Shown: positions 1,495 to 42,356 of the stretch, piece by piece | Position numbering within the stretch: the first letter of the stretch is position 1 | How the letters are laid out: every line of letters begins with the position of its first letter | Source: Cloeon dipterum | Lineage: Eukaryota > Arthropoda > Insecta > Ephemeroptera > Baetidae | Length of the DNA stretch: 64,000 nt | Reading direction: 5' to 3' | NCBI RefSeq assembly: GCF_949628265.1 | Contig: NC_088787.1 | Coordinates: 1,540,501 to 1,604,500 of the forward strand | Position numbers and translations under genes: made by a program | Notes under the pieces: model-generated | Seen by the model: only the letters and a program-made list of their open reading frames with translations | Databases searched by the model: none | What the model was told of the DNA's origin: nothing

Positions 1495-4400
1495 ATGATC
1501 AAAACTCAATTTGCCCTGCTTTTCACTCTCCTCGCAATTTACTTTGCTACAGGTTAGAAAATTTAATTTGTGTTTGTTAAATTGTATCTCTTTCGACCGC
1601 AGATGTTTGGAGCGCGACCACTCGAAGGCCGAGGACGTCTACGAGTACGATAGTTGCTAAGCCAATTCGAAGAATGACAACCACGACGAGGCGTCCAACT
1701 AAAAGAACGACTCCTCCTCCGAACACGGACAGTTCATATCCCTTTTGCAGGAATTACAATCAAATAAAAAAGGTGAACTTCTAAAGATTTAAATGAAAAA
1801 TTATGTTTCAATCCATCACATAATAAGAATCTCCTGGAAACTGCGGTCCCCGATGGTACGACTGACATATATATTTGTGTTTTAAACTAATCGATATTTA
1901 TTAATACATTTTAACAACATAGATTTTGTTGCTGGCAAACGAGGTACTGTAATAATGTTCTACTTTCTACTTCAACAACAATTCACACAAAAAATGAAAT
2001 TTTTAGACTTGCTTCTTGAGTTGCTCGACCCGAGACAAATACCTCAAGGGATTTTCAGCAAAAAAGGGAATAGAATATTCTTCGAAAGTGTTGAAAAGGT
2101 TGTAGCCCAGGTACCAATTTCTTACGTTTTCTTAAATGTAAATCCGAAAAGATCGACTACAAGGCAGCAGTTGAGGCGTGTTTGTATCGGAAAATGCAGC
2201 TTTTGGCGTTTGACACGCCAGCAGAGATAAATAACAATCGGTTTTTTGTCACATACTGGGCATTTCTTGAAAACATGCCTGACTCAGGTTAAAATCCAAT
2301 TAATTTTCGCTGAAACTTGATTGGCTTTATGTTTTCCATACTAAAGTGCCTGAAATGGATTATGTGTGGACGAGTGCGGTGCCGTGTTCGAAAAGCGATC
2401 CGCTGAACAAAGCCACCAATTCGTGCTCGAGCGTCACGTGGTGTTCGAGCAAAGTCGAAACTCGCCTTGATTACACGTTGAATTTGGGTCAAATTTCCCC
2501 GCCTTACTGCTTGATTTATAAAAGGTTGAATAAGCAACTCGTGCCCATGAACTGCTCCTTCGCATCGTTCTTCTTGTGCGAGGTTTTAAAAAAATATGGA
2601 CCTAAATTGAAATAAATCTTTACTGATTCTGTTTGAATAGCTTTCTTGCTCGAAGCCAACCTGCCCGTCAGAAAAAATGTGCATTAAAGATGTAAAAGGA
2701 TTGTTAGAAGAAGGAATTCTCGGGTTTTAATAAACTATTTTCCAGGAATCCCTTTTTGAGGTGGTTGACGGAAAAACGTACATGAAAACAGGCAAGTTAC
2801 CAACATCTACAATACTCGTCAGATTTAGTTGATTAATTTAAATGATATTGTAATGTACTTTTATTCACTTCGAATCATGAGAAATTGTGAATTTCAGGAA
2901 GAGAAATACGAGGAAAGTGGGAGAAATCGACTCACAACAATTCTGATCACTACTACTTTCTCGGAGAAAAATTGGTTAGCCATCCGTAGTTTTGCCAAAA
3001 TTACAAATTTAAATTCTGTACCCCAAAAAGGTAACGTGGAGCGAAAACTGGAAGACGTGCTGCAGTCTGGGCCTCAAGCCTTTACCCTTGAGCGAGGACA
3101 TTTCCCGCTTTGACCGACACAACTCCCGTATCTATAAAACATATAAGACACGAATTTAATCAAAACCCTCTCCCTCCAGCGATGCAGGGTGTGGTTTACT
3201 GGACAGCGATGACCCGAGCAGGTTGTCCCTATCAATTCGAAAACTGCTTCCAAGAGAGAACGGAGTTTCCTCTGCGCGTCTTTGGTTTGAAAGAGGGAGG
3301 GTCTTGCGTGGCCATTTCGGTCCGCGACAGCAGCGCCAGAGCCAAGATAGGAACGGGATTGGCAGTGAAATCAATGGTTTGCAGCTCAAAACTTTTGATG
3401 GCCTGCAAAGGACCAGCGCAAACATTTGAAGTCAGGGTATATCAATTGTTTGATTCTAAATTACTTTGTTTATAATTTTCGTTAAAGGAAAATATTGCTA
3501 GCTGTGATTTGCCCGAGTGTACCGGAATCCCTGATTGCGTCATGGATGTAATTTCCTTTTGAAAAATCTATTTTACAAAAGCTAACAGAAATGCTTGCAG
3601 GATTCGAAATTCCTTACAAGACCTGCCAGAGTTTTGATCAGTGAGCTCAGATTAGAGATAAATATAGGTTTACCACTTTAATTTATCACCTCAATAAAAG
3701 ACACTCAAACTTACGGTAAATGGGATACTGCCTGCGACATGAGTTTTCTCCAGTTGAGAAATGAACTGGTTTGTTAATTATAGTAAAATTCTTCTCAATA
3801 CATTTATTTAATTTTAAGGGAACTTGGGACGAGGCTTACAAGCGGTGCTGCTCCCTCGGGATGGACCTCATGTCAATCCAAAATCCGAGCAAACAAAACT
3901 GCATGTCTAAATCTCCAGGTTGGTTATTAGTTTTTACACAAAAAACGTCAGAATTATTTTTTTGGATTGGACATTGTAGGCCTAGCAGATCTCGAAAAAA
4001 GCCTGTTTAAAGGCCAAATCTGGACGTCGGGGAGGGACGTTGAGGCTTGTCGCGGAAGATTGCGCTGGTGCAATGGCTACCTGAATGACTACCTGAAAAA
4101 AGATATCGTTTGGAAGAAAGGCGTGGACCCGAAATCAGCAAACAACTCTTGCGTGTACATTGACTTTGACGATCCCGATGTGCCCACCCTTGGATTGGCT
4201 GACTGCTCTGAGAAAAAACAGATCGTGTGCGAGGTATGCAACCTATTTGGGAGGATTTTAAATTTATGTACGCGTATTTTAGGCTCCTGCAGGAACGGAC
4301 TACAGGACGAAAATACACTTGTTTTTCTGTAGAAATTCTTTCAGAGCTAAACAAAGTTGGTTAAACTTTATTTTTTGAATGTTTTTTTTTTTAAATCAAA

Positions 4401-5874
4401 CCACTAGACGAAGCAAGCAAAATTTGGAATACTGGAGACATGAGCCAAGCTGGTTATAGCTTTAAAGTAATTATAAATATTTATAAATCATTTGAAGAAA
4501 AGTTTTTGGGTTGGTCTAAATTTCAGGAAATGGTACAATGCCTGGCGGAGTATCTGGGACTGGTAATTTAATTTTAAAAATAAGAATAACAAGATTTAAT
4601 TCAATTTTAAGGTGTATGACTCGACAAAAATCAACGATCATGTTTATCTGAGAATGATGTCTCGAATGTTTTTCCCTATGTAAAATACGACAACTATGAT
4701 GATTTATAATAATGTTTCAATTTAATAAATCATAGCAATTCATCTGCGATGAACAATGCGATTCAGGATAAAAACGATTGGCTTATGTCGCAACCTAAGC
4801 TCAGCTCCGCTGGAGTTTTCACCAGATTCTTGACAGAAGCGACCGAAGATATCTCGGACGAATTCCTTTCTGGCCACTTCCAACTGGCCGCCGAAATGAT
4901 CCGCCAACTCTACAATTGCAAAGACACCGCAAGTACGTATAACTACATTTTTGCGAGCTAATTTTAAAATTCTGTAACTATACGAAGAAACCAATAACGA
5001 AGAGACGTTCGCTTTCGACTTTCTCAAATGCCTCGTTGAGTCAAAAGGGTTGAATCGTTTTTGGAGAGCTTACAATTTCGAGATGGATGTACGGGAATAA
5101 TTTACATTGCTTTTCACACATTAATCTTTGATAACAGGGCTTCAGCGTGATTCCACTGCCTGACGAATTCTACTCGCTATGCTCGACGTTTCAAAACTTT
5201 TTACAAAACACGTCACTTTGCATACGTATGTTTTCTAAATTCCTGCAAACGCAATGTTTAATATTAATTATTTCAATTAGCAACTGACTTTGTAGCTGAA
5301 TTAGATCAAACTGGAATTTACTATTCAAAGCTGCCGATTAATGTTCAAAAGGTTATATAAAAGAATTAAAATTTAATAGAACTAAAGACTAATTTTCATT
5401 GCAGTTCCGAACATCGTCGTATACCGCGTGCTTGGAGAGGAGCGGCGCGTTGCCTTACGCAGAAACCAAAGAGATTTTCGACTCCCTCTACAAATATTTC
5501 AGGAGTAAGCTTTCCCAGACTGAAAAAAATCCTAATTTCTTTAAACTGAGGTTTGGTTCATAGGCCAGGCGCCGAATCTGACGATAATCTGGGACCAAGC
5601 GTATTTGAACAACATCGATGGCTTCACTTGGTGCGCCAGCGATTTCGACCCCTTATACGACCCCATGAACCACGTCGCGGTGCCCGTCGACGTGATCAAG
5701 GAGGTGTCCGGAAACCCCCTGATGCTGGTCTCGCTGCCAGGGCCGGAACCAAACCTGCACGCCGTTCCGGTCACCGATGAGCTCAAATACGAGACCCATG
5801 TTTTTTGTCGTTTCTCCATAAACATCGTTGCTTTTTGCCGGTCAAACCCAGGCTTGAAACGCTGGGAGTACTAA
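1495..5874 (+). CDS. A1: secreted four-CTLD protein with OBP-like module
   Basis: A spliced model of 27 exons stays in frame to TAA at 5872 and gives about 964 residues. Exons: 1495-1552, 1603-1772, 1828-1855, 1923-1943, 2007-2098, 2152-2287, 2347-2582, 2641-2691, 2746-2791, 2898-2974, 3031-3127, 3180-3436, 3488-3547, 3601-3640, 3701-3768, 3819-3918, 3980-4233, 4283-4355, 4408-4466, 4527-4562, 4612-4679, 4736-4932, 4988-5088, 5138-5225, 5281-5351, 5405-5504, 5564-5874. Residues 1-19 form a signal peptide (MIKTQFALLFTLLAIYFATG). Residues 20-76 are a Thr/Pro/Arg linker. CTLDs lie at about 120-247, 296-423, 465-597 and 785-964, each with W..A...C starts and C-x-x-C-type ends such as ADCSEKKQIVCE. 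A helical Cys module lies at about 620-775. No EPN, QPD or WND sugar motif is seen. Intron 9 begins with GC. The secreted binding role is inferred; no ligand can be read from the sequence. Confidence 0.85.
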
Positions 5875-7270: not shown

Positions 7271-10200
7271 ATGATCAAAACTCAATTTGCTCTTCTTTTC
7301 GCAATTTACTTTGCTATAGGTTGGTAATTATTATTTAATTTTGTTAAATACGATTTCTTTCGAACAGATGTTTGGAGCGCGACCACTCGCAGGCCGAGGG
7401 CGACCACGACCACGACGGTTGCTAAACCGATTGGAAGAATAACAACCACGACAAAACGTCCAACAACTAAGATAACGACGACTCCTCCGAATACCGACAG
7501 TTCGTATCCGTTTTGCAGGAATTATAATAAAATAAAAAAGGTAACAATGAAAAGAATCTAAATTAAAATCTTCGATTCAATCCGTCTCATAATAAAAGGA
7601 TCTCCTGGAAAGTTCGCTCTCCGATGGTAAGACTGACATATTTGTTTACTTAACTAATCGATAATTATTAATTCGCTGAAACTAATATAGATTTTGTTGC
7701 TGGGAAACGAGGTATTACTATAATGACCATCCTTAATTATACGGTTAACAAAAACTGGTACGAAAAATGAAATTTTTAGACTTGGTGCTGGAATTGCTTG
7801 ACCAGAGACCAATACCTCAAGGATTTTTAAGGAAAAGGGGAAATAGAATATTTTTTGATAGCATTGAAAAGGTTGTAGCCCAAGGTACCAATGTTTAACA
7901 TTTTCTAAAATGTGAATCCTAAAAGGTAAACCACAAAGCAGCAGTTGAGGCGTGTTTGTATCGGAAAATGCAGCTTTTGGCGCTTGATACGCCAGGAGAG
8001 ATAGATGATAAGTTTGTTACCATGAACTGGAAACTCGATGATGGCACACAATTCAATGACACATGTAAACTACATATTTTTAAAATAATTAAATTATCTT
8101 CATGTCTCCAATAAAGCGGCTTACATGGAGTTTTTGTGGACGAGTGCGGTGCCGTGTTCGAAAAGCGATCCGCTGAACAAAACCACCAATTCGTGCTCAA
8201 GCGTCACGTGGTGTTCGAGCAAAGTCGAAAGCAACCTCGACTACACACTGAATTTGGGTCAAATTTCCCCGCCGTACTGCCTGATTTATAAATGGTCGAC
8301 TAAGCAACTCGTGCCAACGAACTGCTCCTTCGGATCGCTCTTCATGTGCGAGGTATTAAAATGGAGAGTTTTAAATTGTAATAAATTTTATATTTGATTC
8401 TGTTTTTAAAGCTGTCTTGCTCAAAGCCAACCTGCCCATCAGAAAAAATGTGCATCAAAGATGTAAGATGATTTTTCTTTTCGAAGATTTTCTGGATTTT
8501 TTAAACTTTTCCCCAGGAATCCCTTTTTGAGCTTAAGGATGGAAAAACATACTTGAAAACAGGTGAATGGTTAAATACTTTAACTCAACTATTAAGTTGA
8601 GAAATCGTGACTTTCAGGAAGAGAAATACGAGGAAAATGGGAGAAATCAAATAAGTTTAACAGTTCATATCGTTTTTACTTTCTCGGAGAAAAACTGGTT
8701 AACCAACAAAATAGCTGTTACCAAAATTAAAAATATTTACATTCCTTATCGAAAAAGGTGACGTGGACTGAAAACTGGAAGACCTGTTGCAGCCTGGGCC
8801 TCAAGCCTTTGTCCTTGGGCCAACACATTTTCCACTTTGACCGATACAACTCCTGTAACTTTAAAAAAACGTTATGGCACGATTTCTTTTTAAATTAAAT
8901 CCCACCTTCCAGCGATGCAGGGTCTGGTGCACTGGACAGCAATGACCAGGGCTGGATGTCAGTATCAATTCGAAAACTGCTTCCAAGAGAGCACAGAGTT
9001 TCCTCTGCGTGTCTATGGGTTGAAAGAGGGAGGGTCTTGCGTGGCCATTTCGGTCCACGACAGCAGCGCCATTGCCATGTCGGGCACGGGATTGGCAGCG
9101 AAAACGATGGTCTGTGCCACAAAGCTTTTGATGGCCTGCGAAGGGCCGGCGCAAACTTTTGAAGTCAGGGTATATCAATTGTTTAATTCTAAATTACTTT
9201 GTTTAAAAATTTGGAATAGGAAAAGATTTTCAGCTGTGATTTGCCCGAGTGTACCGGAATTCCTGATTGCGTCATGGATGTAATAACATTTTTAATAATA
9301 AATTTCGCAAGAACTTCGTCATATTATGCTTATAGGATTCGAAATTCCTCACAAGACCAGCCAGAGTTTTGCTCAGTGAGTTGAAATTAAACATAAAAAT
9401 GGCTTTACCACAATTTCTTTTCATCTCAAGATCCCCAACGCTTTGGACAATGGACTCCAGCCTGTGACACGAGTTTTCTCCTGTTGCGCAATGAACTGGT
9501 CTCTTTTTCATAATAAAAACTTCAATCGATGCATTTAATTAATTTTAAGGGAACTTGGGACGAGGCTTACAAAAGGTGCTGCTCCCACGGGATGGACCTA
9601 ATGTCGATCCAAAATCCGAGCAAACAATACTGCATGAATAAAGTTCCAAGTTCGGAAATTGTTTTTACGCAAAAAATATCAGCATTCTTTTATTTTTTCT
9701 CTTCATAGCCCTTTCGATAAAGATAAACAATGGTAGACTCCCGTTCAAAGGCCACATCTGGACGTCAGGGAGGGACCTTGAGACTTATTGTCGCGGAAAA
9801 TTGCGCTGGTGCACCGGTTACCTGAACGACTATTTGAAAAAGGATATCGTTTGGAAGAAAGGCGTGGACCCGAAATCAGCAAACAACTCTTGCGTTTACA
9901 TCGACTTTGACGAACCCGATGTACCCAGCCTTGGCTTGGCAGACTGCTCTGAGAAAAAACAGATCCTGTGCGAAGTATTGATATCTATAATTAAAAGAAT
10001 TATTTGGGAGGATTTTAAAACGTTTGTAATATAGGCTCCTGCAGGAGTGAGCTACAGGTCACAAATGCACTCGGTTTTCTGTAGAAATTCCTTCAGTGTT
10101 AAACAAAGTTGGTTAAATTTATTTTGTAAACGAATATTTAGTAAAATCAAATATCACAAGGTGAAGCAAGTAAAATTTGGAATACTGGAGACATTAGTCG

Positions 10201-11667
10201 CGCTGGATATAATTTTAAAGTAACATAAAAAATAGACAAATTTCTTTCATAGAAACAACGTTGTTTGGTTGGTTTGAATTTCAGAAAATGGTACAATGCC
10301 TGGCGGAGCATCTTGGACTGGTATCTTGAATGCAAAAATATAAAAATATTAAGATTTAATTTATTTTTAAGGTGTACGACTCGACAAAAATCAACGAGCA
10401 TGTTTATCTGAGCATGATGTCTCGAGTATTCTTCCGTTTGTAAAAATGCAATAACTATAAAGACAATTTATAATATATTTTAAACAACTAAATTAAAGCA
10501 ATCAATCTGAGATAGACAAAGCGACGCAGGATCTGAATGGTTTGGTTCGGGTGCTACCTCGATCCAACTCCACAATAATGATAATGAAGATCCTGACAGA
10601 AACGACTGATGAAGTCATGGACGAATTCCTTTCCGGCCACTTTCAACTGGCCACCGAAATGATCCGCAAACTCATCGATTGCAGACACACCGCAAGTAAA
10701 TAACTTAGATCTTTTTTAAAACATCCGACCTGACTTTGAATTTCTGAATCTACGAAGAAACTAACGAAGAGACGTTCGCTTTCGATTTTCTTATGTGCCT
10801 CGTAGAGTCGAAAGGGTTGGATCGTTTTTGGAGTGCTTACAATTTCGAGTTGGAGGTATATGGAAATAATTAAAAGACGCTTCATTAAATTTTTTTAATT
10901 TTTTTAAAAATAGGGATTCAGCGTGATTCCAATGGTTGATGAATTCTACTCGCCATGCTCGACGTTTCAAAACTTTTTACAAAACATGTCACTTTGCATA
11001 CGTATTTCTTCTAAATTCCTGCAAAACGTACTATTTAATAATAATTTTGTTAGCAACTGACCTTCTAGCTGGATTGGGTAAAACTGGAATTTTTATTTCA
11101 ACCAAGCCGATCAATGTTAGAAGGGTATTCTTAAAGAATTAATTAAATTTAACCATTGACTAATTTCCATTGCAGTTCCGAACGTCGTCGTACACCGCGT
11201 GCTTGGAGAGGAACGGCTCGTTGCCTTACGCAGAAACAAAAGAAATATTTTACTACCTCTACTTTTTTATCAGGAGTGAGTTTTCCAAGCATGAAAGTGT
11301 CCTAAAAAAATCCAAAAATTACCTCAAATTCTTTAAACTGAGGCACAATTTGTCTCTAGACCAAGCGCCGAATCTGACGATAATCTGGGACCAAGCGTAC
11401 ATGAACAACATCGGCGGCTTCGCGTGGTGCGCCAGCGACTACGACCCCTACAACCTCTTAAACCACGTCGCGGTGCCCGTCGACGTGATTAAAGAAGTGT
11501 CCGGAAACCCCCTGATGTTGGTCTCGCTGCCAGGGTCGGAGCCAAATCTGCACGCCGTTCCGGTGACCGGCCAGCTCAAATACGAGACGGATGTTTTCTG
11601 TCGCTTTTACATCGACACCGTTGAGTATTGTCTCTCAAATCCTGGCTTGAAGCGCTGGGAATACTAA
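7271..11667 (+). CDS. A2: secreted four-CTLD protein with OBP-like module
   Basis: Same exon plan and phases as A1, intact from ATG 7271 to TAA 11665. The signal peptide is shorter (MIKTQFALLFAIYFAIG). The linker is rich in Thr (RPRATTTTTVAKP). CTLD1 is encoded around 7926-8352, CTLD2 around 8762-9168, and CTLD3 around 9430-9974 with one extra codon before the CRGKLRWC motif. The OBP-like module spans about 10170-10860 and CTLD4 about 10916-11667. An apparent shift of frame after VVAQ near 7896 disappears if exon 5 ends after GAA AAG at about 7870. A4 and A5 use the equivalent donor and A6 requires it, so this is an annotation trap and the gene is intact. Intron 9 has a normal GT donor, unlike A1 and A3. 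Confidence 0.85.
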
Positions 11668-12566: not shown

Positions 12567-15500
12567 ATGGTCAAAGCACAATTTGCTCTTCTTATTTTCA
12601 TCACAATTTACTTTGCTACAGGTTAGAAAATTTAATTTGTATTTGTTAAATTGTATCTCTTTCGACCGCAGATGTATGGAGCGCGACCACTCGAAGGCCG
12701 AGGGCGACCACAACCACGACGGCTGCTAAACCAATTCGAAGAATGACAACAACGACAAAGCGTCCAACTAAGAAAACGACCACTCCTCCGAACTCCGACC
12801 GTTCATATCCCTTTTGCAGGAATTACAATCAAATAAAAAAGGTAGCTTCCTAAATAATCTAAATAAAAAAATTATTCAATTTCAATCCTTCTAATAATTA
12901 GAATGTCCTGGAAACTACGGTCAGCGATGGTATGACTTTTGTACTATACTAATCGATAATTATTAAAATGTTTCTAACATAGATTTTGTTGTTGGGGATC
13001 GAGGTATTATGATCGTGTCCAACTTAATTACATGGCACGAACAGTTCAATTTTCAGACTTGCTGGTTGAGTTGCTCGACCCGAAACCGCTCCCTGAAGGA
13101 ATTTTCAGCAAAAAGGGAAACAGAATATTCTTTGAAAGCATGGAAAAAGTTGTTGTCAAGACCAAGACGCGATTTGTAGCATTTTTTAAAGTTTAAATCC
13201 TAAAAGGTCAACCACAAAGCCGCAGTTGAGGCGTGTTTGTATCGGAAAATGCAGCTTTTCGCGCTTGATACGCCAGGAGAGATAAATAATCGGTTCACTG
13301 ACAAATACTGGGTAGCGGTTGATAACATGGCTGACTCAAGTTAACAACTAAATATATTTGCCTAGACTTTTAGTTTAATTTATAATTTCTATTAAGTGGC
13401 TGACTTGAATTTCGTGTGGACGAGTGCGGTGCCGTGTTCGAAAAGCGATCCGCTGAACAAAACCACCAATTCCTGCTCCAGCGTCACGTGGTGTTCGAGC
13501 AAAATCGAAAGCCGCCTCGACTACACGCTCAATTTGGGCAAATTTTCCCCACCTTACTGCCTGATGTATAAATGGACGACCAAGCAACTCGTGCCAACGA
13601 ACTGCTCCTTCGGATCGTTCTTCATGTGCGAGGTATTAAAATAGAGGGTTGTAAATTGTAATGAATTTTATAATTGATTCTGTTTTTAAAGCTGTCTTGC
13701 TCCAAGCCAAGCTGCCCATCAGAAAAAATGTGCATCAAGGATGTAAGGTTTATTTTTGAAAAGTTTGCTTTTTTAATCTTTTTCCCAGGAATCTCTTTTT
13801 GAGGTCGTTGATGGAAAAACGTACATGAAATCAGGCAAGTTGTCAACATCTTGTTAATTGTTATACTTTTACTCAATAATGACACGATAAATTGTGAATT
13901 TTAGGAAGAGAAATTCGCGGAAAGTGGGAGAAATCAGTGTTAAACAATACACATCACTACTACTTTCTCGGAGAAAAATTGGTTAACCATAAGCAAACTC
14001 TCCCATAATTAAAAATTTTAAATTCTTAATCCCAAAAAGGTGACTTGGAGTGAAAACTGGAAGACCTGCTGCAGTCTGGGCCTCAAGCCTTTACCCTTGG
14101 ACGAACAAGTTTCCCACTTTGACCGATCCAACTCCCGTAACTAGAAAACAAGACTTGATTTATTTTTTCATCAAAACCTTCCCTCCAGCGATGCAGGGTG
14201 TGGTTTACTGGACAGCGATGACCAGGGCTGATTGTCAGTATCAATTCGAAAACTGCTTCCAAGAAAGCACGGTTTATCCTTCGCGTGTCTATGGTTTGAA
14301 AGAGGGAGGGTCTTGCGTGGCCGTTTCGGTCCGCGACAGCATCGCAAAAACCGTGACGGGCATTGGATTGGCATCGAAAACAATGTTGTGCAATTCAAAG
14401 CTGTTGATGGCCTGCGAAGGTCCGGTGCAAACTTTTGACGTCAGGGTATGTAGATTGTTTGATTACTAATTTCTTTGTTTAAAATTTGATAAAGGAAAAG
14501 ATTACCAGCTGCGATTTGCCCAAGTGTACCGGAATTCCTGATTGCGTCATGGATGTAGGAACATTTTCAAGAATAAATTTCCCAAAAGATTAAACAAATG
14601 CTTGCAGGATTCGAAATTCCTTACAAGACCTGCCAGAGTTTTGCTCGGTGAGCTCAAATTAGACATAAATATTGGTTTACCACTTTAATTTATCACCTCA
14701 AGACACTCAAACTTACGGTGTATGGGATATTGCCTGCGACATGAGTTTTCTCCCATTTAGAAATGAACTGGTATGTTATAATTATAGTAAAATTCTTCTC
14801 AATACATCTATTTAATTTTAAGGGAACTTGGGACGAGGCTTACAAGCGGTGCTGCTCCCTCGGGATGGACCTCATGTCGATTCAAAATCCGAGCAAACAA
14901 AACTGCATGTTTAAATCTCCATGTTGGGAACTTAAATTTTTCACAAAAAACGTCAGAATTAATTTTATTTCTGATTAGCTATTAAGGACGAGGATAATCT
15001 CGAAAAAATCCTGTTCAAAGGCCACATCTGGACGTCGGGGAGGGACGTTGAGGCTTGTCGCGGAAAATTGCGTTGGTGCAATGGCTACCTGAACGACTAC
15101 TTGAAAAAGGATATCGTTTGGAAGAAAGGCGTGGATCCGAAATCAGCAAACAACTCTTGCGTTTACATCGACTTTGACGTTTCCGATGTGCCCAGCCTTG
15201 GTTTGGCAGACTGCTCTGAGAAAAAACAGATCGTGTGCGAGGTATCGATATCTAAAAATATTTTGGAGGGTATTAATATTTATGTTCGTATTATAGGCTC
15301 CCTTAGGAGTGGGCTACAGGTCGCAAATGCACTTATTTTTCTGTAGAAATTCTTTTAGAGTTCGAACAAGTTGGTTAAATTTTATGTTGTCTTTGAATTT
15401 TTGGTAAAATCTCAAATATCGCAAGGTGAAGCAAATAAAATTTGGAATACTGGAGACATGAGTCAAGCTGGATATGGCTTTAAAGTAATATCGAATATTG

Positions 15501-19730: not shown

Positions 19731-20052
19731 TAATTTTGTTGATTTTTATCTTATAAATAAGTTCTTTCTTCGCAAAATGTAAATCTTCGGTTTTTAAATA
19801 TTTATGAAAACCATTGAGTTCTAAGAAATTATTTTAGCTGAAATTTCTGGCTCTTTAATTACTATTTTTATTTTAAACCTTAAATACTGTGGCGAATGGG
19901 TTAGTTGTGATTGACGTTTTAATCTCTGCGAGTCAGAAAAAAGATTACAAAAACTGAATGTTTCATCGTGTCTCAGTGATAGTGAGTGATAACGTGATAA
20001 GAATTCGACCGTCACCGTAACGAATAGATTGAATTTTTCTGGCTGAACAGCT

Positions 20053-20066
20053 GTTGCTATGGCAAC
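20053..20066. promoter_or_regulatory. X-box (RFX site) downstream of B1
   Basis: GTTGCTATGGCAAC is a perfect inverted-repeat X-box of the kind bound by RFX factors, which in animals commonly drive ciliary genes. It is retained in the duplicate flank after B2 while neighbouring bases differ. Binding and target gene are inferred. Confidence 0.45.
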
Positions 20067-20709: not shown

Positions 20710-20721
20710 GATAAGCTTATC
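20710..20721. promoter_or_regulatory. GATA palindrome upstream of B2
   Basis: GATAAGCTTATC lies about 80 bases before the B2 ATG, at the position equivalent to the B1 site. The flanks on both sides differ from B1, so retention of the whole 12-mer may reflect selection. Confidence 0.5.
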
Positions 20722-30028: not shown

Positions 30029-33000
30029 TTAGTACTCCACTAACGTGTCTTTTTCCATCCTTGTCGAGCACTCGTTCACGACGTAATCTGGAACGCGGCA
30101 AAAGACTGAGGTTTGGTACATGAGCTGCTCGGTCGCGGGGACGGCGTGCAGATTTGGTTTGGCTCCCGGCAGCGAGACGAGCATCACGAAATCCTGTTTG
30201 GTCGTCGCGTTCACGGTGACAGGGATCGCAATATTTGGACCGGCGTCGCTGCGGCACCACATGAATTTGTTGTTCAGCTTGTCGTAAAATCCTTGGTCCC
30301 AGATGATCGTCAGCGTTGGAGCAATTCCTTTGATTTAATTTTAGCATTTCGTCAGCTTTATTTCTTTGAATTTCTTACTTCTCATATAATTGTAGATCGT
30401 TTCAAACTCGTCCTTGTTTTCCGCGTAAGGCAGCGAGCCCCTTTTCTCCAAACACGCGGTAAAAGATGACGTGTTAAACTGCAGATTTAATAAATATATG
30501 CAAAAATTGTATAGTAAAACAACCATTTTAATGTTGATTGGTCTCATGGTGAGATAAGGCCCAGTTTCAGTCAGCGGAAGTAAGTCGTGTGCTAAAAATA
30601 GAAAGTTAAAAAAGATTATATGAAATTAAAGGGAAAATCATACATGGAATGCATGAAGATTTATTTTCAAAAAAATTTTCAAACGTCAAGCACGGTGAGT
30701 TAAGATCGTTTTCCGCGGGAATCACACTGCTTTTCTGTAAAATAGGTGGAAAATAAATTGAAAAGACTCGTTGGCAAAATAAGTTAAGTAAAATACTTCC
30801 AACGGGAATTCGTAAAACCTCCAGAAACGGGCCACTGCTTTGGACTGAAGGAAACACACCAGGAAGTCAAACGCAAACGTTTCCTCGTTCGTTACTTTAA
30901 AGTGAATATTTTAGTTTTCTTAGAGCCAGGTAGATGGAGGGCACCGCCATTCATTTACAATTCCTAACTAATCGATATTTTTTTTGGTTTAACGAAAAAT
31001 GAAATGGTTTAAAGTAAAAGAGTAGTTCTCGAATTCCCCGCAGATATGATTATACCCACCTGCTTTTCTAGAATTTGGGCAACGCTACCTTTAAAATTCC
31101 CACGAGTTGCACCTCACCCGCAAAAAACCATCAACGTGGACACGTAATTCGTTAGCGAAAAAACACATTCGCAGAATCCAGAACCTCCTCGTGTTTTAAG
31201 GAATTAAAATAAACTGCTGTCATTTAACCAGGGGATAAATTTACAGCAAGCATTTTCGAGGGATTTACAGTTAACAATCCTCTTTAAAAGTGGCCCTAAA
31301 TCTACTACCCTTTTTTCCCATTGACCTCAGGAATTATACTTTTGATTCCCCTGCATTCATTGAGTTTGATGATCATTTTGTAGGAAAAATCAAAGTGGGC
31401 CGAGAAATAGTCATCCATCACATCATTTTTCATATCAACAATGAAATTGCTCATCTTCTTCGCCTCGTGAAGGGTTTTGAACGACGAGATTAACGCCGTT
31501 CGGTCACTCTTCTTATTCTCCATTGAATCGTAGTCACTTTTGAAAATTTGAATTTCTGATTCGTAACTGTTTTAACCTACTTACAAGGGATTGAATAATC
31601 TGGACATCATTTTCAGGAACCCGTGCACGTTGATTTTGGTTGAGTTGTACACCTTGGTTGTATTATATAATTAAACTATTAATTTATCTTAAAATAACCT
31701 TTTCCTCGACTTTACCAGTCCTATGTGCTCTGCTAGGCATTGAGTCATTTTCTGGAAGACGGATTTATGCATTAATTTATATTTGTATTTACTTTTTGGT
31801 TTCACTTTGGCTGCGTAACTGGTGCGGCTCAAATCGCCAGTGTTCCAAATTTTCTCGGCATCGCCTAAGTTAACACAAAAAGAATTTGAACAGCAAAGAA
31901 AGAAAATAAAGAAATACTTTCTTTAACTCTGAAATTTCTCCTGCAAGGTTGATAATGCATCTGCGATTTGAAGCCAAATCCCATGGGCGCCTTTTTGCAA
32001 AAATAAATTAAACGAATCCCATAATTCCGACATAATAAACCTCGCAAATGATCTGTTTCTTTTCCGAGCAATCTGCCAGCGCCAGACTAGGCACATTTGG
32101 ATCCCCAAAATCGATGTAGACGCATGAGTTGTTTGCAAATCTCGGATCGTGGCCCTTTTTCCATTTCAGGTCGTTTTTCAGGTAGTCGTTCAGGTAGCCG
32201 GTGCACCATCGCAATTGTCCGCGGCAAGAATCGATATCCCGCCCCGCCGTCCAGGCCTCGGTCCGAAAAGGAAAATCCCCTTTCTCATTCGGGTTACTAT
32301 TTTCTGATTTTTGTTTTTAATTTTAATTCCTGAAAATAACTTTTATAAAAGCGTAACTGTAAGGGCTGCCGAAGCAGTCTTGCTTGTCTAGATTGTGTAC
32401 TGAAAGGAGGTCCATTCCGAGGGAGCAGCACCTCTTGTAGGCCTCGTCCCAAGTGCCCTGGTGTAAGATTTCGTTAAATCAAACGGTTCTCTCTGTGATC
32501 TCATTACATATTCATCATGCAACTCGAGGATGCTACTGTCGCAACATGAATGCCAATTGCCGAAACGCCAGGGTGCTTTCAATTGAATTTATATTTTTAT
32601 TAGAAGGATTTAATTCGCAACTCACCAAGCAAGACTTGGAAGGGTTGCTTGAAGAACAACTTATCCTGCAGATAATATTCAAATTTTTTTCAAATATTTA
32701 AAGGTTTCACAATTCTACTTCCATAACGCAATCAGGAAGCCCTTTGCACTCTGGCAGGTCGCAGTTGTTTATTTTGCCATCCTACCAGACTTATTTTAAA
32801 TCGATTAAATTATCATAGTTTTTGTAACCCTAATTTCGAAGGTCTGTTCCGTTCCTTGGCAGCCCAACAGCAGTTTAGAGGCGCAGACGGTGGTTTTCAC
32901 TGCCAGATACGTGAACATCAACTCCTTGGCCTTTGGGTTTATGTTCGAAACAGCCACACAGGAGCCTCCTTGTCGGACCCCATTGATGTCAATGTCAAAC

Positions 33001-34988
33001 GATTCCGATGCGTTGTGGAAGCAGTTTTCGAACAAAAGCGGACATCCCGCTCGAGTCATTGCCGACCAGTGAACCACACCCTGCATGGCTGCAAAAGTGG
33101 TTTTTAGACAATCCAAATATCGATTCATGAAGCTAGAATAAAATTTTGAAGCTGAGTCACTCAGTCGTGATTGTCGACACACCGAAAATTAGTGGAAGCG
33201 TCAAACTTTGGAGGTATTTAGGGTTCGGACCAATCAAAAAGCCTGAAAAGAACGCCGACGAACTACAGGTGGTGCAAAATATGAGGTTATTGTTTCGATC
33301 AGGCCTATCGGAGGCCGCTCTCATCTCTGATTGGTCGACGACGTTCTTGTGGTAGATGTTATACGCAAAAGTAATGGTTTATTTGTTTCTACTGATATAT
33401 TTCGATTGAATAATTAAAATTGACCCTCTGATTGGCCATGTCAAAAATTAAACTCTAGTGCTTTATGCCCTTATTGAAGAAAAATAGTTTTACGGGAATT
33501 GGGTCTGTTGAAATGGTTGAAAAAAGAGTTAGTCAGAGCTAAAGGTTTGAGGCCCAGCCTGCAGCACGTCATCCAATTCTCCTTCCAGCTCACCTTCGAG
33601 ATAACATTTTTAATTTCCATGATAAATCTATATATAAAAATACAAATTTCTCTCCCAGGAAACAAAAGCCAAATTCAGCTTGCTCCCACGTGCCGACGAT
33701 CTCATGTTCTGTTTTATAAAATTCATAAATATTTCTATACGGAAAATTCAAAAGAAACCTTTTTTGAGAAATGTTTTCCCTCGAATTACTTCAAATAAGG
33801 ACTCCTGCCAAATTTAACTGCTTCATTATTTAAATTCAAATCAATTTTAATCGCTTACATCTTTGTTGCAGTCGTTCTGTGACGGACACACTGGCTTCGA
33901 GCAAGCCGACTAAATTCAACAAGATTAATTGATTCATTAAAAAAAGCACCGATTTAATTACCTCGCATGAAAAAAAGGCTTCAAAGGAGCAATCCATAGG
34001 TAAGAACTTTTGGGTCAATCTACTGTAAATAATGCAGTAGGGCGGAGTAAATTTGCCCAAATTCAACGTGTAATCTAGTCGAGTTTCCACATTGTTTGGA
34101 CACCAGGTGAGACTGGAGCACGAATTCGTGGCTTTGTTCAGCGGATCGCTTTTCGAACACGGCGCTGCACTCGTCCACAAAAACTCTTTGGTGTCTGATG
34201 CCAAAGGGTAATTTTTTCAATTTATTAATCGTGTTTTTGTACCTCTGTTTCTCAAGCTTGATTTCAACGACCTGCCATAAAAATACGAATCGTCGATTTT
34301 CTCAGATGCCAGCAACTGCAGTTTCCGGTACAAACACGCCTCCACGGCTCTGCCGTACTCGACCTGGGAAAAATTTTAAATCATTTTTAAGTTTCAGCAC
34401 GCAGAGTTTACTTTGTCAACGCTGTCAAAGGTAATTCTGAATCCTCTTTTGTTGTAAGTTCCGATCGGCCGGTCTCGAACGTCAAGTAATTCGGTCATGC
34501 TGTCTTTGACACGGATTAATCATTGTTTTAGATTTTTATATTTACCTCGCTTTCCTGTGATGAAATCTTGAATAAAGTAATCAAATTTAAAAACTGTAAA
34601 ATTGAACACAAAAATGTTGCTAAACCTTCACTTATTGCCGTTTCTTGTACGTTCTAATTTAATAAAAAACAAATTTTAAAATAATTGCAACAAAATTATG
34701 AACCAACCTTTTTAATTCGATTGTAATTTCTGCAAAATATATAATTTGGACTCTCTGTTTTCGGACTGGTAGTCGTTGGCTTGACTGTAGTTGTAGTTGT
34801 CGATTTCCTGATCCTTTTTTTCAGGGGTTTGGTGGTTGCTTCCTGCCTGCGAGTTGTCGCTCCCCAAACCTCTAAAGAAATTAACGGGAGTCCAGACCTG
34901 CATTAGAAAATCTAAACAAACCTGCAACAATAACGAGGATTGAGAGCACAAACAGGACCTGAAAAAGGAGCCTGTTGGCCAGTACCAT
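30029..34988 (-). CDS. A5: secreted four-CTLD protein, divergent subgroup
   Basis: Intact, ATG 34988-34986 to TAA 30031-30029, sister of A4. The signal peptide starts MVLANRLLFQVLFVLSI. The linker has RKSTTTTTVKPTTTSP. CTLD1 includes LNKATNSCSSLTWCPNN. CTLD2 has ENWMTCCRLGLKPLALT, with the MQGVVHWSAMTRA block starting at 33088. CTLD3 includes NPNEKGDFPFRTEAWTAG. The module includes KMTQCLAEHIGL. CTLD4 ends EKDTLVEY, a few residues longer than the other subgroup. Long introns lie at 30895-31339 and 33089-33493, in the same positions as in A4. The exon 16 donor is the GT at CTTACA|GTTACG, which keeps the A1 phase. Confidence 0.83.
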
Positions 34989-37907: not shown

Positions 37908-40900
37908 TTAGTACTCCCAGCGTTGCAAGCCTGGGTTTGACATACAATAAGCCAAGTAGTTGATGGAAAAGCGACAAAAAACATCTGTCTCGTATTTGAG
38001 CACGTCAGTCGCTGGAACGGCGTGCAGATTTGGCTCCGGTCCTGGCAACGAGACCAGCATCAGGGGGCTCTCATTGTCAGTTACCTCCTTAATCACGTTG
38101 ACGGGCACCACGATGTGGCTAAAGGGGTCGTAGGGGTTGATGTTGCTGGCGCACCAATTGAAGCCGCCATTGCCGTTCAAATACGCTTGGTCCCAGATTA
38201 TCGTCAGATTCGGCGCCTGGCCTAAGAACCAATTAAGTCTCAGTTTAATCAAATTGGGATATCTTTTGGATTTTTTTCAGTCTGGGAAAGCTTACTCCTG
38301 AAATAAGTGTAGAGGAAGTTAAAAATCTCTTTTGTTTCTGCGTAAGGCAACGCGCCATTCCTATCCAAGCACGTGGTGTACGACGACGTCCGGAACTGGA
38401 TTGGAAATTAATCAATAGTTCGATTTAATATATTATTTAATAAAACCTTTTTAACGTTTATCGGCTGGGTCGAAAAAAAAATTCCAATTTCAGCCAATCC
38501 AGTATAAAAATCATTTGCTAACAGGAATAATTAAAATTAAATATTGCGAATGTCAGGAATTTAGGAAACATACGTATGCAAAGTGATGTATTTCGTAAAA
38601 TGTTCATAAACGTCGAGCATGGCGAGTAGAAGTCATCGGGAGTAATCACTGAGTAATCCTTTTTTCAAAGATTAAAATTTATTAATTGCCACTTTAATTA
38701 TTCCCCTTACTTCCCACTCGAAATTGTAAACACTCCAAAAACGATTCAATCCTTTTGACTCAACGAGGCATTTGAGAATATCGAAAGCGAACGTCTCTTC
38801 CTTAGTTTCTTCGTATAGTTTCAGATTTGTTAAATCAGCTCGGATATTTCAAAAATAATCTATTAAATTACTTGCGGTGTCTCTGCAATGGAAGAGTTGG
38901 CGGGTCATTTCGGCGGCCAGTTGAAAGTGGCCAGAAAAGAACTGGTCAAGCACTTCTTCATACGCATCTGATGACACCTTCATCATCATTTTTTTATTGT
39001 TTTTTATTAGGGGCCAAGCTTGTGACAAAAGCTCGTCTGTCTTATTCTGAATTTCTTTTTCCACCTCAGATTGAATGCTTCAAATTATTAGATTCCAAAA
39101 ATATTACAAATTTTCTCTATATAGTAATTGCATTTTTACAATGGGATGAACATTCGAGACATCATGCTCAGATAGACTTGCTCGTTGATTTTTGTCGAGT
39201 CGTACACCTTGAAAATGAATGAAATATATTTTTTTTTTATTATTTCAGTCAAAATACCAGTCCTAGAAACTCTGTCAGGCATTGTACCATTTTCTAAAAT
39301 TCAGAACATTCATAATATCTAAGCTACAAATAAGATAGCAATATTTAAAATCACTTTAAAATTATATCCAGCTCGGCTAATGTCTCCAGTATTCCAGATT
39401 TTACTTGCTTCGCCTTGAAATATTTGATTTTACTAAATATTCATTTAAAAAATGAATTTAACCAACTTTGTTTAACTCTGAAAGAATTTCTACAGAAATG
39501 TAGGTGCATTTGCGACCTGTAGCCCATAGCTGCAGGAGCCTAAAATACACGCATTCATTATATAATTTAATATTTTCCCAAAAATATTTTCATTTTTAGA
39601 TATCGATACCTCGCACACGATCTGTTTCTTCTCAGAGCAGTCAGCCAAGCCAAGGCTGCGCACATCGGGATCGTCAAAGTCGATGTACACGCAAGAGTTG
39701 TTTGCTGATTTCGGGTCCACGCCTTTCTTCCAAACGATATCCTTTTTCAAGAAGTCGTTCAGGTAGCCGGTGCACCAGCGCAATTTTCCGCGACAAGCCT
39801 CAAGGTCCCTCCCTGACGTCCAGATGTGGCCTTTGAACGGGAGATACCCAGTATTACCTACCATTCCCGGGAGAGCGATATTAAAAATAAAGCTGACTTT
39901 TTTGCAAAGAAACTTTTTCCGAACCTCGAAATATATCCATGCAGTATTGTTTGCTCGGATTTTGGACCGACATGAGGTTCATCCCGAGGGAGCAGCACCG
40001 CTTGTAAGCCTCGTCCCAAGTTCCCTTCAAATTAATTAAAATGCATCGAGTGAAATTTTAATAATAAAAAACTAACCAGTTCATCGCGTAACTGTAGAAA
40101 ATTCATGTCACAGGCATGAGCCCATTTTCCATAACGCTTGGGATCTTTAATTGAGTTGAAAAATAATCGTGTTAAACCTCCTACTTTTAAGTCAAATTCA
40201 AACTTACTGAGCAAAACTTTTTCAGGTTTTGTGATGAATTTCGAATCCTGTAAGCATTTTTATTGTGATTTTTGTTCTTTAAAAATGTTATTACATCCAT
40301 GACGCAATTAGGAATTCCGGTACACTTGGGCAAATCGCAGCTGGCAATCTTTTCCTATACCAAATATTTAAAAAATAATATAATTAAGAAGAAAAAATGT
40401 ATCTACCCTGATTTCAAAAGTTTGATCTGGCGCTTCGCACGCCAACAAAAGCTTTGAAGTGCAGACCATCGTTTTCGCTGCCAATGCCGTTCCCATAGCT
40501 GCTCTGGCGGTGCTGTCGCGCACCGAAATGGCCACGCAAGACCCTCCCTCTTTCAATCCATAGACACGGTGAGGATAAACCGCGCTTTCTTGGAAGCAGC
40601 TTTCGAATTGATAGGGACAACCTGCTCGGTTCATCGCTGTCCAGAAAACCTTACCCTGCATTGCTGACGGGGGAAGCAAGGGTTTGATAAAATAAATTGA
40701 GTCTATTGTTTTATAGTTACGGGAGTTGTGTCTGTCAAGGTGGTTAATATGATGAACCAAGGATATAGGCTTCAGGCCCAGGCTGCAGCAGGTCTTCCAG
40801 TTTTCACTCCAAGACACCTTTTTGGGATAAAGATTTTAAATTTGTAATTTTAAGACAGCTGGATGGTTGACCAATTTTTCGCCGATAAAGTTGTTGTATG

Positions 40901-42356
40901 AACTATTAAACCTTGATTTCTCCCACTTTCCATGAATTTCTCTTCCTGAAATTTGCAATTTCTCATGAAAAAAATTGAGTAAAGGTATTCAAATATCTTT
41001 TAAATTAATCAACTTTTAATCTGACTGTTATGGATGTATGCAACATGCCTTTTTTAATGTAGGTTTTTCCGTCAACTACTTCAAAAAGGGATTCCTAGGA
41101 AAAAGTTTAAAAAATCCAAATATTCCTCCAAATAAACATTTTACATCTTTAATGCACATTTTTTCTGATGGGCAGGTTGGCTTTGAGCAAGACAGCTTTT
41201 CAAACAAACGCAGATAAGATATTTTCAAAATTAAGCCCTCTATTTTAATACCTCGCACAAGAAGAGCGATTCGAAGGAGCAGTTCGTTGGCACGAGTTGC
41301 TTGGTCGACCTTTTATAAATCAAGCAGTAGGGCGGGGAAATTTGACCCAAATTGAGCGTGTAGTCGAGGCGGCTTTCGACTTTGCTCGAACACCACGTGA
41401 CGCTGGAGCAGGAATTGGTGGCTTTGTTCAGCGGATCGCTTTTCGAGCACGGCACCGCACTCGTCCACAGAAAATCCATGTAAGCCTCTATATACGGGAA
41501 ACATAAAATCAACCAAGTTGTAGCAAAAGTATTTTGTTTCTACCCAAGGCAACGAATCGCATTCTATCATCTTCGAGATTCCATTTTGAGGTAAAAAACG
41601 TATTATTTATCTCTGCTGGGGTATCAAGCGCCAAAAGCTGCATTTTCCGATACAAACACGCCTCAGCTGCTGCTTTGTGGTTGACCTTTATTAATTTATA
41701 TTAGAAAATGTTGAAAATTGCGTTTGGGTTGCAACATTTTCAATGCTTTCGAAGAATATTCTATTTCCCTTTTTAATGAATGACCCTTGAGGTGTTTGTT
41801 TCGGGTCGAGCAACTCAGCCAGCAAGCCTACAAAATTTTCATTATTTGTGCCAATTTTTTATAAACATTATACGGAGTTAAGCAGGAAATTATGGAAATT
41901 ATCATAATACCTCGTTCCCCAAAAATCAAATCTATTTTAGTAGTTCATGAATAATTATCGATATTTGTAGAAAAATATACGTCACTCATACCACTGGAAA
42001 GCGTAGTATCCAGGAAATTCTTATCATCAGATGGATTGAAATGGAATTTGTTAATTCAGATTATTTAGAATCGTTATACCTGTTTTATTCGATTGTAATT
42101 CCTGCAAAAGGGATATGAGCTGTCGGAGTTCGGAGGAGGAGTTTTTCTAATTGTTGGACGCCTTGTCGTGGTTGTCATTCCTCTAGTTGGTTTTGCAACC
42201 GTCGTGGTCGTGGATGTTCTCGGCCTTCGAGTGGTTGCGCTCCACACATCTTGTTAAACAAGAGGATATTTTCAAAAATTGAAATTAAAAATTCCTACCT
42301 GTAGCAAAGTAAGTTGCAAGGAGAGCGAAAAGAAGAGCAAATTTAGTTTTGATCAT
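37908..42356 (-). CDS. A6: secreted four-CTLD protein with OBP-like module
   Basis: Intact minus-strand copy of the A1-A3 subgroup, ATG 42356-42354 to TAA 37910-37908. It begins MIKTKFALLFALLATYFATG and continues into a Thr-rich basic linker. CTLD1 has AYMDFLWTSAVPCSKSD. CTLD2 begins with S-W-x-E-N-W and KTCCSLGLKPI. CTLD3 has GTWDEAYKRCCSLGMNL and ADCSEKKQIVCE. The module has KMVQCLTEFLGL and a Met/Lys-rich insert (NNKKMMMKVSSD). CTLD4 ends LQRWEY and has an extra residue pair near VTDNESPLMLVSL. Exon 5 has no donor after GAA AAT other than the GT that directly follows, which fixes the conserved exon 5 boundary for the family. Intron 9 starts with GC (41048). Confidence 0.85.

What the first reader, a model, noticed from the sequence alone, without database searches (positions are those of the whole stretch)
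1495..42356. Six intact copies of a large four-CTLD secreted protein with a non-lectin module inside
Hand splicing gives an uninterrupted frame in all six copies, with the same 27-exon plan. The order signal peptide, basic Thr/Pro linker, three CTLDs, helical Cys module, CTLD is one I cannot match to a known named family. Six intact copies suggest selection for dosage or diversity, as in immune or secretory proteins. Role is inference.
Basis: partly seen in the sequence, partly recalled or inferred. Interest (0 to 1): 0.78.

Follow-up and report, generated by a model that had tools for sequence, protein, structure and literature searches.

The report
Odorant-binding domain inside multi-lectin proteins
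This insect-like genome carries a large family of secreted-type proteins in which an odorant-binding domain, normally a small protein of its own, is built into a chain of C-type-lectin-like domains; no such fusion turned up in the papers searched.

Summary
In detail: six intact copies (955-966 aa), each spliceable into 27 exons without a stop. The unnamed 'helical Cys module' is an insect odorant-binding-protein (OBP) domain. Pfam PBP_GOBP matches all 17 distinct full modules scanned (best 7.5e-8). Cysteines C1, C3, C4, C6 are kept; C2 and C5 are lost, the published 'Minus-C' pattern.

Decisive: in a distant subfamily of the same genome the same slot holds a classic six-cysteine OBP (L056: C1-X25-C2-X3-C3-X40-C4-X10-C5-X8-C6). 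Pfam finds it in 7 of 8 loci (8.2e-6 to 3.5e-15), with four introns at the same positions and phases.

The window copies belong to at least 40 loci; 39 of 40 have CTLD3 and CTLD4 exons beside the OBP exon. CTLD3 is secure, CTLD2 well supported, CTLD1 weaker, CTLD4 tentative. Sugar/calcium motifs are not conserved.

Likely role, inferred: a secreted carrier or capture protein whose OBP binds a small ligand, with CTLDs as scaffold or anchor. Six paper searches for the fusion found none. No transcript was available.

The parts
1495..5874 (+). Copy A1, whole gene, 27 exons, 964 aa
   Evidence: Hand-spliced open frame, reproduced by the spliced aligner
1495..1772 (+). A1 exons 1-2: hydrophobic leader and basic Thr/Pro-rich linker (residues 1-76)
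   Evidence: hydropathy and linker composition
2007..2582 (+). A1 exons 5-7: CTLD1 (probable)
   Evidence: Profile vs PDB: 10 of 10 hits at E<=1 are CTLD proteins, best 0.022; collinear with CTLD3 over 107 columns, E 0.0088; Pfam Lectin_C 0 of 4
2746..3436 (+). A1 exons 9-12: CTLD2
   Evidence: hhalign to CTLD3 88% and 81%; PDB 5 of 5 hits at E<=1 are mannose receptor 2 or Ly75, best 0.056; Pfam Lectin_C 0 of 4; the CTLD2 of distant L056 scores 21.7 bits, cut-off 22.6
3601..4233 (+). A1 exons 14-17: CTLD3 (secure)
   Evidence: PDB best 1.7e-9, 14 of 17 hits at E<=1 CTLD proteins; Pfam Lectin_C in 3 of 4, best 2.1e-4; in whole A1 16.6 bits, under the cut-off of 22.6
4283..5088 (+). A1 exons 18-23: OBP module (residues 598-775), C1 = C613, C3 = C646, C4 = C737, C6 = C756
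   Evidence: Pfam PBP_GOBP 25.7 bits, cut-off 22; intron positions shared with the classic-OBP subfamily
4666..4874 (+). A1 hypervariable insert between OBP C3 and C4 (residues 672-722; intron 21 lies inside)
   Evidence: 25.8% mean identity over 18 proteins against 68.1% and 58.4% in the flanks; omega 0.70-2.11 against 0.17-0.41 in the OBP core
5138..5874 (+). A1 exons 24-27: CTLD4 (tentative)
   Evidence: PDB 4 of 4 hits at E<=10 carry the tetranectin CTLD (three so named, the fourth recognised from recall), best E 0.24; Pfam Lectin_C 0 of 10; fold pLDDT 36
7271..11667 (+). Copy A2, 27 exons, 966 aa; OBP module exons at 10035-10855
12567..16894 (+). Copy A3, 27 exons, 962 aa; OBP module exons at 15297-16100
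23976..29009 (-). Copy A5, 27 exons, 957 aa; OBP module exons at 24742-25930
30029..34988 (-). Copy A6, 27 exons, 955 aa; OBP module exons at 30797-31990; first exon set by homology to A5
37908..42356 (-). Copy A4, 27 exons, 965 aa; OBP module exons at 38711-39539

Best explanation
Each gene encodes one secreted-type chimeric protein: leader, basic Thr/Pro linker, three CTLD-type domains, one OBP domain, one further CTLD-like domain. Shown by sequence: the continuous coding frame, the OBP identity of the module, its intron positions, and its presence across the family. Inferred: the mature exons of an OBP gene were captured between phase-0 introns of a multi-CTLD gene (exon shuffling). In the window's subfamily the OBP then lost the C2-C5 pair and gained a long insert, and the family spread to at least 40 loci. 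Inferred function: a secreted carrier or capture protein on an outer or fluid-bathed surface. The OBP pocket holds a small hydrophobic ligand; the CTLDs and basic linker act as scaffold or as attachment to glycans, matrix or microbes, probably by contacts other than the standard calcium/sugar site, whose motifs are not conserved. Among the parts measured, gene copies differ most in the OBP insert, so copy number probably serves ligand diversity more than dosage. I put about 0.93 on the fusion and OBP identity, 0.75 on exon shuffling and 0.35 on the functional reading.
For: Pfam PBP_GOBP: 6 of 6 window modules (best 7.5e-8) and 13 of 13 in a wider set (best 8.5e-8), together 17 distinct modules. 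Cysteines at C1, C3, C4, C6 in 18 of 18, 18 of 18, 17 of 17 and 18 of 18; OBPs lacking C2 and C5 are called Minus-C in PMC2722677 (passages). Distant subfamily L056-L062: classic OBP in the same slot, E 6.2e-10 and 2.1e-9, 8.2e-6, 2.7e-14, 3.5e-15, 1.5e-9, 1.5e-9, so 7 of 8 loci; L063 none. L056 against PDB: 14 of 16 hits at E<=1 are OBP, pheromone-binding or D7 proteins (12 so named, two labelled only by Anopheles gene ids that I recall as OBPs), best 5.9e-5. Introns at C1+9 phase 1, C2 phase 0, C3+8 phase 0, C4+5 phase 1 in 7 of 7 distant models; in the window family the first three in 17 of 17 and the fourth in 16 of 17. Phase-0 introns flank the module: upstream 17 of 17, downstream 16 of 17. 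An apparently stand-alone OBP gene (L009) also has phase 0 exactly before C2 and phase 1 after C1 and C4. OBP loci with CTLD3 and CTLD4 exons alongside: 39 of 40. Trees of CTLD1-3, OBP and CTLD4 give the same three main clades. OBP insert omega 2.11 in clade B, 2dlnL 10.2, p 0.0014.
Against: No RNA or protein evidence. The whole A1 protein scores 20 bits for PBP_GOBP, below the cut-off of 22; only the excised module passes. PDB profile hits of the window module are weak (5dic E 0.054 and 0.013), and in the first search an unrelated chain (E 0.05) ranked above it. hhalign of the module profile against single OBPs is not significant (L009 E 0.028; L056 E 0.44). L056 was hand-spliced with the window's intron pattern already known, and its six relatives were modelled on it. 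CTLD4 is unproven: Pfam 0 of 10, fold pLDDT 36, L058's CTLD4 finds no CTLD in PDB. Omega above 1 is significant in one of three clades (A 0.70, C 0.83), and the region was picked after its variability was seen. No ligand, tissue or expression data, so the functional part is inference.
Confidence: 0.7

Rival explanations
1. Secreted immune recognition proteins: the CTLDs bind microbes, and the OBP domain is a remodelled spacer or peptide-binding part without an odorant-like ligand. Copy number reflects an arms race.
For: Multi-CTLD layout with a leader; PDB matches of CTLD2 and CTLD3 are to mannose-receptor-type proteins; a fast-changing insert; loss of the C2-C5 cysteine pair.
Against: Canonical sugar/calcium motifs are not conserved; of the parts measured the fastest change is in the OBP insert, not in a CTLD; no expression or infection data.
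Confidence: 0.25
2. A structural or adhesive secretion (mucus, cuticle, egg coat), where many copies give dosage and the OBP domain is only a disulfide-tied building block.
For: Basic Thr/Pro linker, 68-80% T/P/K/R/S in residues 23-66 of the six copies; many cysteines conserved in all copies; at least 40 loci.
Against: Copies diverge far (52-85% identity in the window), which dosage alone does not ask for; the OBP insert has omega 2.11 in one clade.
Confidence: 0.2
3. Several separate short genes (lectin-like and OBP-like) lie side by side and were joined only on paper.
For: No transcript was seen; five of six models were led by the first.
Against: The introns on either side of the OBP module (17 and 23) are 49-70 nt in the six copies, leaving little room for a promoter, leader and terminator; the frame carries through in all six; CTLD3, OBP and CTLD4 exons lie together at 39 of 40 loci on four chromosome-size contigs.
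Confidence: 0.04
4. The module is another helical cysteine domain that merely resembles an OBP.
For: Window-module matches to PDB are weak, profile comparison with single OBPs is not significant, and two cysteines of the classic OBP are missing.
Against: The distant subfamily has a textbook OBP in the same slot with the same four intron positions; PBP_GOBP is the only family matched by all members.
Confidence: 0.03

Closest known systems
Insect odorant-binding proteins, Minus-C type (PBP/GOBP, PF01395)
   Same: Profile match, C1, C3, C4 and C6 cysteines, C2 and C5 missing, introns of phase 0 and 1 at positions close to those of an OBP gene of this genome (definition in PMC2722677 passages)
   Different: Not a small protein of its own: a domain inside a ~960-aa protein, with about 50 more residues between C3 and C4 than the classic OBP of L056
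Double-domain OBPs (Nasonia, Drosophila dimers, mosquito atypical OBPs)
   Same: OBP fused into a longer protein, clustered copies, loss of cysteines in one domain (PMC3428353 passages)
   Different: There the partner is a second OBP; here the partners are CTLDs
D7 long salivary proteins
   Same: D7 chains appear among the PDB hits of L056's OBP
   Different: Two OBP-type domains and no lectin domains (recalled); only one OBP domain here
Mannose receptor / Ly75 family multi-CTLD receptors
   Same: CTLDs in a row; best PDB matches for CTLD2 and CTLD3
   Different: No membrane segment found; an OBP domain inside; other hallmark domains of those receptors (recalled) did not appear in the Pfam scan of A1
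OBP expansion of the mayfly Cloeon dipterum (191 OBP genes, PMC7250882)
   Same: The host may be this insect: here 190.1 Mb, of which 187.3 Mb in five contigs; there a 180-Mb assembly with 191 OBP genes
   Different: The main text of PMC7250882 never uses the word 'lectin' (term search); supplements were not seen, so whether these genes are among the 191 is unknown

Membership tests
Insect OBP (PBP/GOBP) | Match to the family profile | tested here: met
   6 of 6 and 13 of 13 modules, 17 distinct; A1 module 25.7 bits vs cut-off 22, whole A1 protein 20 bits; bit scores of the other members were not shown; distant subfamily 7 of 8
Insect OBP (PBP/GOBP) | Six cysteines with classic spacing | tested here: not met
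   Window family keeps four (C1, C3, C4, C6), with 85-93 residues between C3 and C4 (the 96 printed for L048 is a mis-picked cysteine). The distant L056 meets the classic spacing
Insect OBP, Minus-C type | C2 and C5 missing, other four kept | tested here: met
   definition from PMC2722677 passages
Insect OBP (PBP/GOBP) | Introns at OBP positions | tested here: met
   Phase 0 exactly before C2 in the window family (17 of 17), distant subfamily (7 of 7) and L009; offsets after C1 and C4 differ from L009 by 3 and 2 residues. Published OBP splice classes were not compared one by one
Insect OBP (PBP/GOBP) | Small single-domain secreted protein | tested here: not met
   955-966 aa multidomain protein; so it contains an OBP domain rather than being a stand-alone OBP
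Insect OBP (PBP/GOBP) | OBP fold and ligand pocket | not testable with these tools
   The spliced module is not given letter for letter by the DNA, which the fold tool asks for, so it was not sent
C-type lectin-like domain | Profile or fold match | tested here: inconclusive
   CTLD3 met; CTLD2 by homology to CTLD3; CTLD1 weak; CTLD4 faint
Sugar-binding C-type lectin | EPN/QPD and WND motifs | tested here: not met
   Not conserved in any of the four domains: EPN/QPD-like triplets in 1 of 18, 0 of 18, 3 of 18 and 7 of 17 members of CTLD1-4, WND-like in 2 of 18, 0 of 18, 0 of 18 and 0 of 17. L056's CTLD3 has EPN
Double-domain OBP / D7 | Two OBP domains | tested here: not met
   One PBP_GOBP place in whole A1; the other copies were scanned by module only
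Mannose receptor / Ly75 family | Membrane-anchored receptor | tested here: not met
   Highest 19-residue hydropathy from residue 40 on is 1.05-1.38 in the six copies

The most novel reading that the evidence does not exclude
An early-branching insect lineage turned an OBP into the variable module of a large germline repertoire: about 47 lectin-scaffolded capture proteins, each with its own diversified ligand loop, secreted into water or onto the body surface for chemical sensing or defence. Part of what is counted as an OBP expansion in such insects would then be this chimeric family.
Probability: 0.15. Interest if true: 0.87.

Novelty: new variant of a known kind. Interest (0 to 1): 0.72.

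Why it matters
OBPs are treated as small stand-alone carriers; the only fusions met in the passages read are OBP with OBP (PMC3428353). A family of at least 40 OBP-CTLD chimeras (about 47 with the distant subfamily) would show an OBP used as a shuffled domain, link chemosensory and lectin-type proteins, and give a directly testable case of which part of an OBP diversifies. It also warns that OBP gene counts taken by domain search may mix stand-alone carriers with domains of larger proteins.

Tried and rejected
Rejected: a self-trained gene finder ended with 20-43 exons per gene, zero-length ones included, and was dropped for hand splicing plus a protein-guided aligner. The reading of the module as an unknown helical domain was dropped once Pfam and the distant subfamily agreed. 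Side-by-side short genes were rejected on exon adjacency and intron length.

Led nowhere: AlphaFold of CTLD4 (pLDDT 36; no fold search was run on it). hhalign of the OBP profile against single sequences. PDB search with L058's CTLD4 (one hit, plectin, E 1.3). The six-frame PF01395 scan scored four candidates and found one match, probably because OBP exons are short. The host could not be named: a COX1 family search gave one match below cut-off on C2 and no mitochondrial contig, and two genome-note searches gave no fitting paper. Rfam 0 hits and tRNA 0 hits in the window.

Rows dropped: L044 (cut in mid-OBP; its model holds a stop) was left out of the intron table, the wider OBP set, the three part trees and the omega sets. 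L049 (one stop in a doubtful first exon, an odd extra intron) was left out of the omega sets. The pairwise dN/dS table shows 11 chosen pairs only. Of 13 CTLD4 sequences printed, 10 were used. CTLD1, CTLD2 and CTLD3 profiles used 4 sequences each. N-termini of L043, L045, L046, L049, L050 and L052 are unreliable. L058 lacks a modelled C5-C6 exon. In one search L048's C4 was taken at another cysteine, hence 16 of 17; L042 differs at the downstream intron. The omega sets used gap-free codons only. Log and checkpoint omegas differ a little (clade A insert 0.70 and 0.74; clade C core 0.17 and 0.18). L009 departs from the published spacing (C1-X23-C2, C5-X9-C6).
Full report
1. What is there. The window lies at C2:1540501-1604500 of an unnamed 190.1-Mb genome in 10 contigs; C1-C5 are 33-43 Mb long and hold 187.3 Mb together. 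Copy A1 was spliced by hand: 27 exons, 964 aa, no stop. A protein-guided spliced aligner gave the other five with no internal stop and, after a hand correction of A6's first exon, 27 exons each. The copies are 52-85% identical, and pairwise dN/dS is 0.20-0.47: proteins under constraint, not decayed repeats. A1 and A3 use a GC donor at intron 9.

2. The module between CTLD3 and CTLD4 is an odorant-binding-protein domain. On whole A1, Pfam gave PBP_GOBP at E 7.6e-4 (20 bits, just under the cut-off of 22) and Lectin_C at 0.013. With the module alone, all 6 window copies match PBP_GOBP (best 7.5e-8; A1 25.7 bits). A 13-member set, two window copies and 11 paralogs from elsewhere in the genome, matches in 13 of 13 (best 8.5e-8); together 17 distinct modules. 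In PDB profile searches the OBP 5dic came at E 0.054, just behind an unrelated chain, and then first at 0.013. These are weak but in the right register, cysteine on cysteine. Four cysteines (A1 613, 646, 737, 756) are present in 18 of 18, 18 of 18, 17 of 17 and 18 of 18 proteins. They fall on OBP C1, C3, C4 and C6; C2 and C5 are missing. PMC2722677 (passages seen) calls such OBPs Minus-C and gives, for silkworm, the spacing C1-X25-68-C2-X3-C3-X31-46-C4-X8-29-C5-X8-C6. The window family departs from it in C3-C4, with 85-93 residues.

3. The decisive comparison is inside the same genome. A search with a CTLD3 query (150 of 438 candidates scored) returned 39 close loci (60-98% identical) and 8 distant ones (36-40%). 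The 8 distant loci (L056-L063) were fetched. In L056 the slot after CTLD3 holds C1-X25-C2-X3-C3-X40-C4-X10-C5-X8-C6, a classic OBP, with PBP_GOBP E 6.2e-10 across nearly the whole profile. Against PDB, 14 of 16 hits at E<=1 are OBP, pheromone-binding or D7 proteins, best 5.9e-5 (two of the 14 are labelled by Anopheles gene ids only, which I recall as OBPs). L057-L062 give 2.1e-9, 8.2e-6, 2.7e-14, 3.5e-15, 1.5e-9 and 1.5e-9; L063 gives none. L056's CTLD3 matches Lectin_C at 3.3e-9, and its CTLD2 at 3.4e-4, just under the cut-off. Downstream of the OBP, the CTLD4 exon pair read in L056 is also found in L059-L062, with scores of 154-347 against shuffled controls of 0 or less; L057, L058 and L063 score 15-37 against controls of -9 or less, so their CTLD4 is doubtful (the query came from L056 itself).

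4. The introns tell the same story. Introns lie nine residues on from C1 (phase 1), exactly before C2 (phase 0), eight on from C3 (phase 0) and five on from C4 (phase 1) in 7 of 7 distant models. In the window family the first three are found in 17 of 17 and the fourth in 16 of 17, where the miss is a mis-picked cysteine. Models were template-led within each subfamily; L056 itself was hand-spliced, with the window's pattern already known to me. An OBP gene on another contig (L009, hand-spliced; no Lectin_C match near it in the capped list) also has phase 0 exactly before C2 and phase 1 after C1 and C4, offset by 3 and 2 residues. In the window family the module is bounded by phase-0 introns upstream (17 of 17) and downstream (16 of 17), the symmetric layout expected of a shuffled module. 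PMC2722677 reports a first OBP intron in phase 0 near the signal-peptide cleavage site, so capture of the mature OBP exons is a natural reading; this step is inference.

5. Family size. Counting by hand the hits to the last OBP exon gives 40 loci: 33 on C2, 4 on C4, 2 on C5 and 1 on C1. The list was cut, so this is a lower bound. Of these, 39 of 40 have a CTLD3 and a CTLD4 exon within 2.6 kb (the other, at C2:477 kb, has CTLD4 only), and all 39 close CTLD3 exons sit beside an OBP exon; one partial CTLD4 (C2:3663323) has no OBP neighbour (from the listings). Eighteen proteins were modelled (6 window, 12 fetched). They form three main clades. Trees of CTLD1-3, OBP and CTLD4 taken apart (17 proteins) give the same three clades, with L042 moving and small disagreements inside clades, so the fusion came before the family spread.

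6. The CTLDs. CTLD3: PDB best 1.7e-9 with 14 of 17 hits CTLD proteins; Lectin_C in 3 of 4. CTLD2: homologous to CTLD3 (hhalign 88% and 81%); PDB 5 of 5 mannose receptor 2 or Ly75, best 0.056; Lectin_C 0 of 4. CTLD1: PDB 10 of 10 CTLD proteins, best 0.022; collinear with CTLD3 over 107 columns, E 0.0088; Lectin_C 0 of 4. CTLD4: PDB 4 of 4 hits carry the tetranectin CTLD, best E 0.24 (three are named so, and 3l9j chain C is labelled TNFalpha but shows the same sequence, which I recognise from recall). Against it: Lectin_C 0 of 10, no hhalign match to CTLD3, AlphaFold pLDDT 36, and L058's CTLD4 finds none. EPN/QPD and WND are not conserved, so sugar binding by the standard route is not supported.

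7. What changes fastest. Between OBP C3 and C4 the 18 proteins share 25.8% mean identity, against 68.1% and 58.4% on either side; the leader-plus-linker part is next lowest at 39.1%. Codon-model omega for this insert is 0.70, 2.11 and 0.83 in clades A, B and C, against 0.41, 0.35 and 0.17 for the OBP core and 0.23-0.65 for the CTLDs. Clade B differs from 1 (2dlnL 10.2, p 0.0014; dropping any one member leaves 1.67-2.63). Clade A (2dlnL 2.15, p 0.14) and clade C (2dlnL 0.52) do not. The stretch was chosen after its variability was seen, and alignment error can inflate omega, so this is a lead and not proof of positive selection.

8. Mechanism. Shown: a hydrophobic leader, no further membrane segment, one OBP domain, CTLDs around it. 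Inferred: the OBP binds a small hydrophobic ligand; the CTLDs and basic linker hold the protein at a surface or assemble it; diversity of the insert tunes the ligand. Immune and structural readings remain open (see rivals). No function was tested.

9. Known or new. Both domain types are known; their fusion was not found. Searches for it: C-type lectin + odorant binding protein + mayfly (one paper); fusion + multidomain (none); PBP_GOBP + C-type lectin + domain architecture (none); odorant-binding + C-type lectin + Ephemeroptera + domain (the same one paper); domain fusion (none); lectin domain + fused + insect (four papers, two opened for passages, neither on such a fusion; the other two seen as listings). 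Other searches: Cloeon dipterum + genome + odorant-binding, genome notes, OBP gene structure. The library lacks most subscription journals. PMC3428353 (passages) describes OBP-OBP fusions. PMC7250882 (passages) reports 191 OBPs in Cloeon dipterum and has no occurrence of 'lectin' in its main text. PMC5381652 (passages) mentions the two families apart. PMC6275457 (passages) states that mites, like crustaceans and myriapods, lack OBPs, which fits a hexapod host here. The host species is not proven.

Noticed in passing
C2:1.522-1.537 Mb, just left of the window: Three more copies of the family (OBP, CTLD3 and CTLD4 exons at about 1522.3-1524.7, 1525.8-1527.9 and 1534.9-1537.2 kb), making nine in this cluster.
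   Followed up: partly
L063 (C4:24205300-24208900): A possible intermediate: the residue at the C2 position is not Cys, as in the window family, and its last exon resembles the window family's CTLD4, but Pfam finds no OBP.
   Followed up: partly
window 16524-16586 and 11276-11359: Intron 26 of A3 (63 nt) and of A2 (84 nt) is open and a multiple of three, so retained-intron forms would keep the frame.
   Followed up: no
window 2792-2897 and 13835-13904: Intron 9 of A1 and A3 has a GC donor (GCAAGT), while the other four copies use GT.
   Followed up: no
window 42952-44435 and 59753-61224: A 1.5-kb inverted duplication, 90% identical, with only these two full-length copies found in the genome; ORFs at 54.4-56.4 kb (-) and 57.6-59.0 kb (+) between them look mirrored.
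   Followed up: partly
window 18702-23335: RCC1-type gene material between the copies (RCC1 E 4.1e-13 at 21113-21385; blocks 19091-20100 and 22333-23335 repeated at 81% identity).
   Followed up: no
window 49327-50398: A BTB/BACK-type gene fragment (BACK E 4.5e-4, just under cut-off).
   Followed up: no
G000 C2:6339498, 6352950, 6366483, 6380016: Four Lectin_C hits with identical scores and the same listed in-frame stops spaced about 13.5 kb apart, and another such pair at C2:25217658 and 25231129: young tandem duplications or an assembly artefact.
   Followed up: no
G000 whole genome: At least 106 Lectin_C matches (150 of 375 candidates scored), a CTLD-rich genome beyond this family.
   Followed up: no
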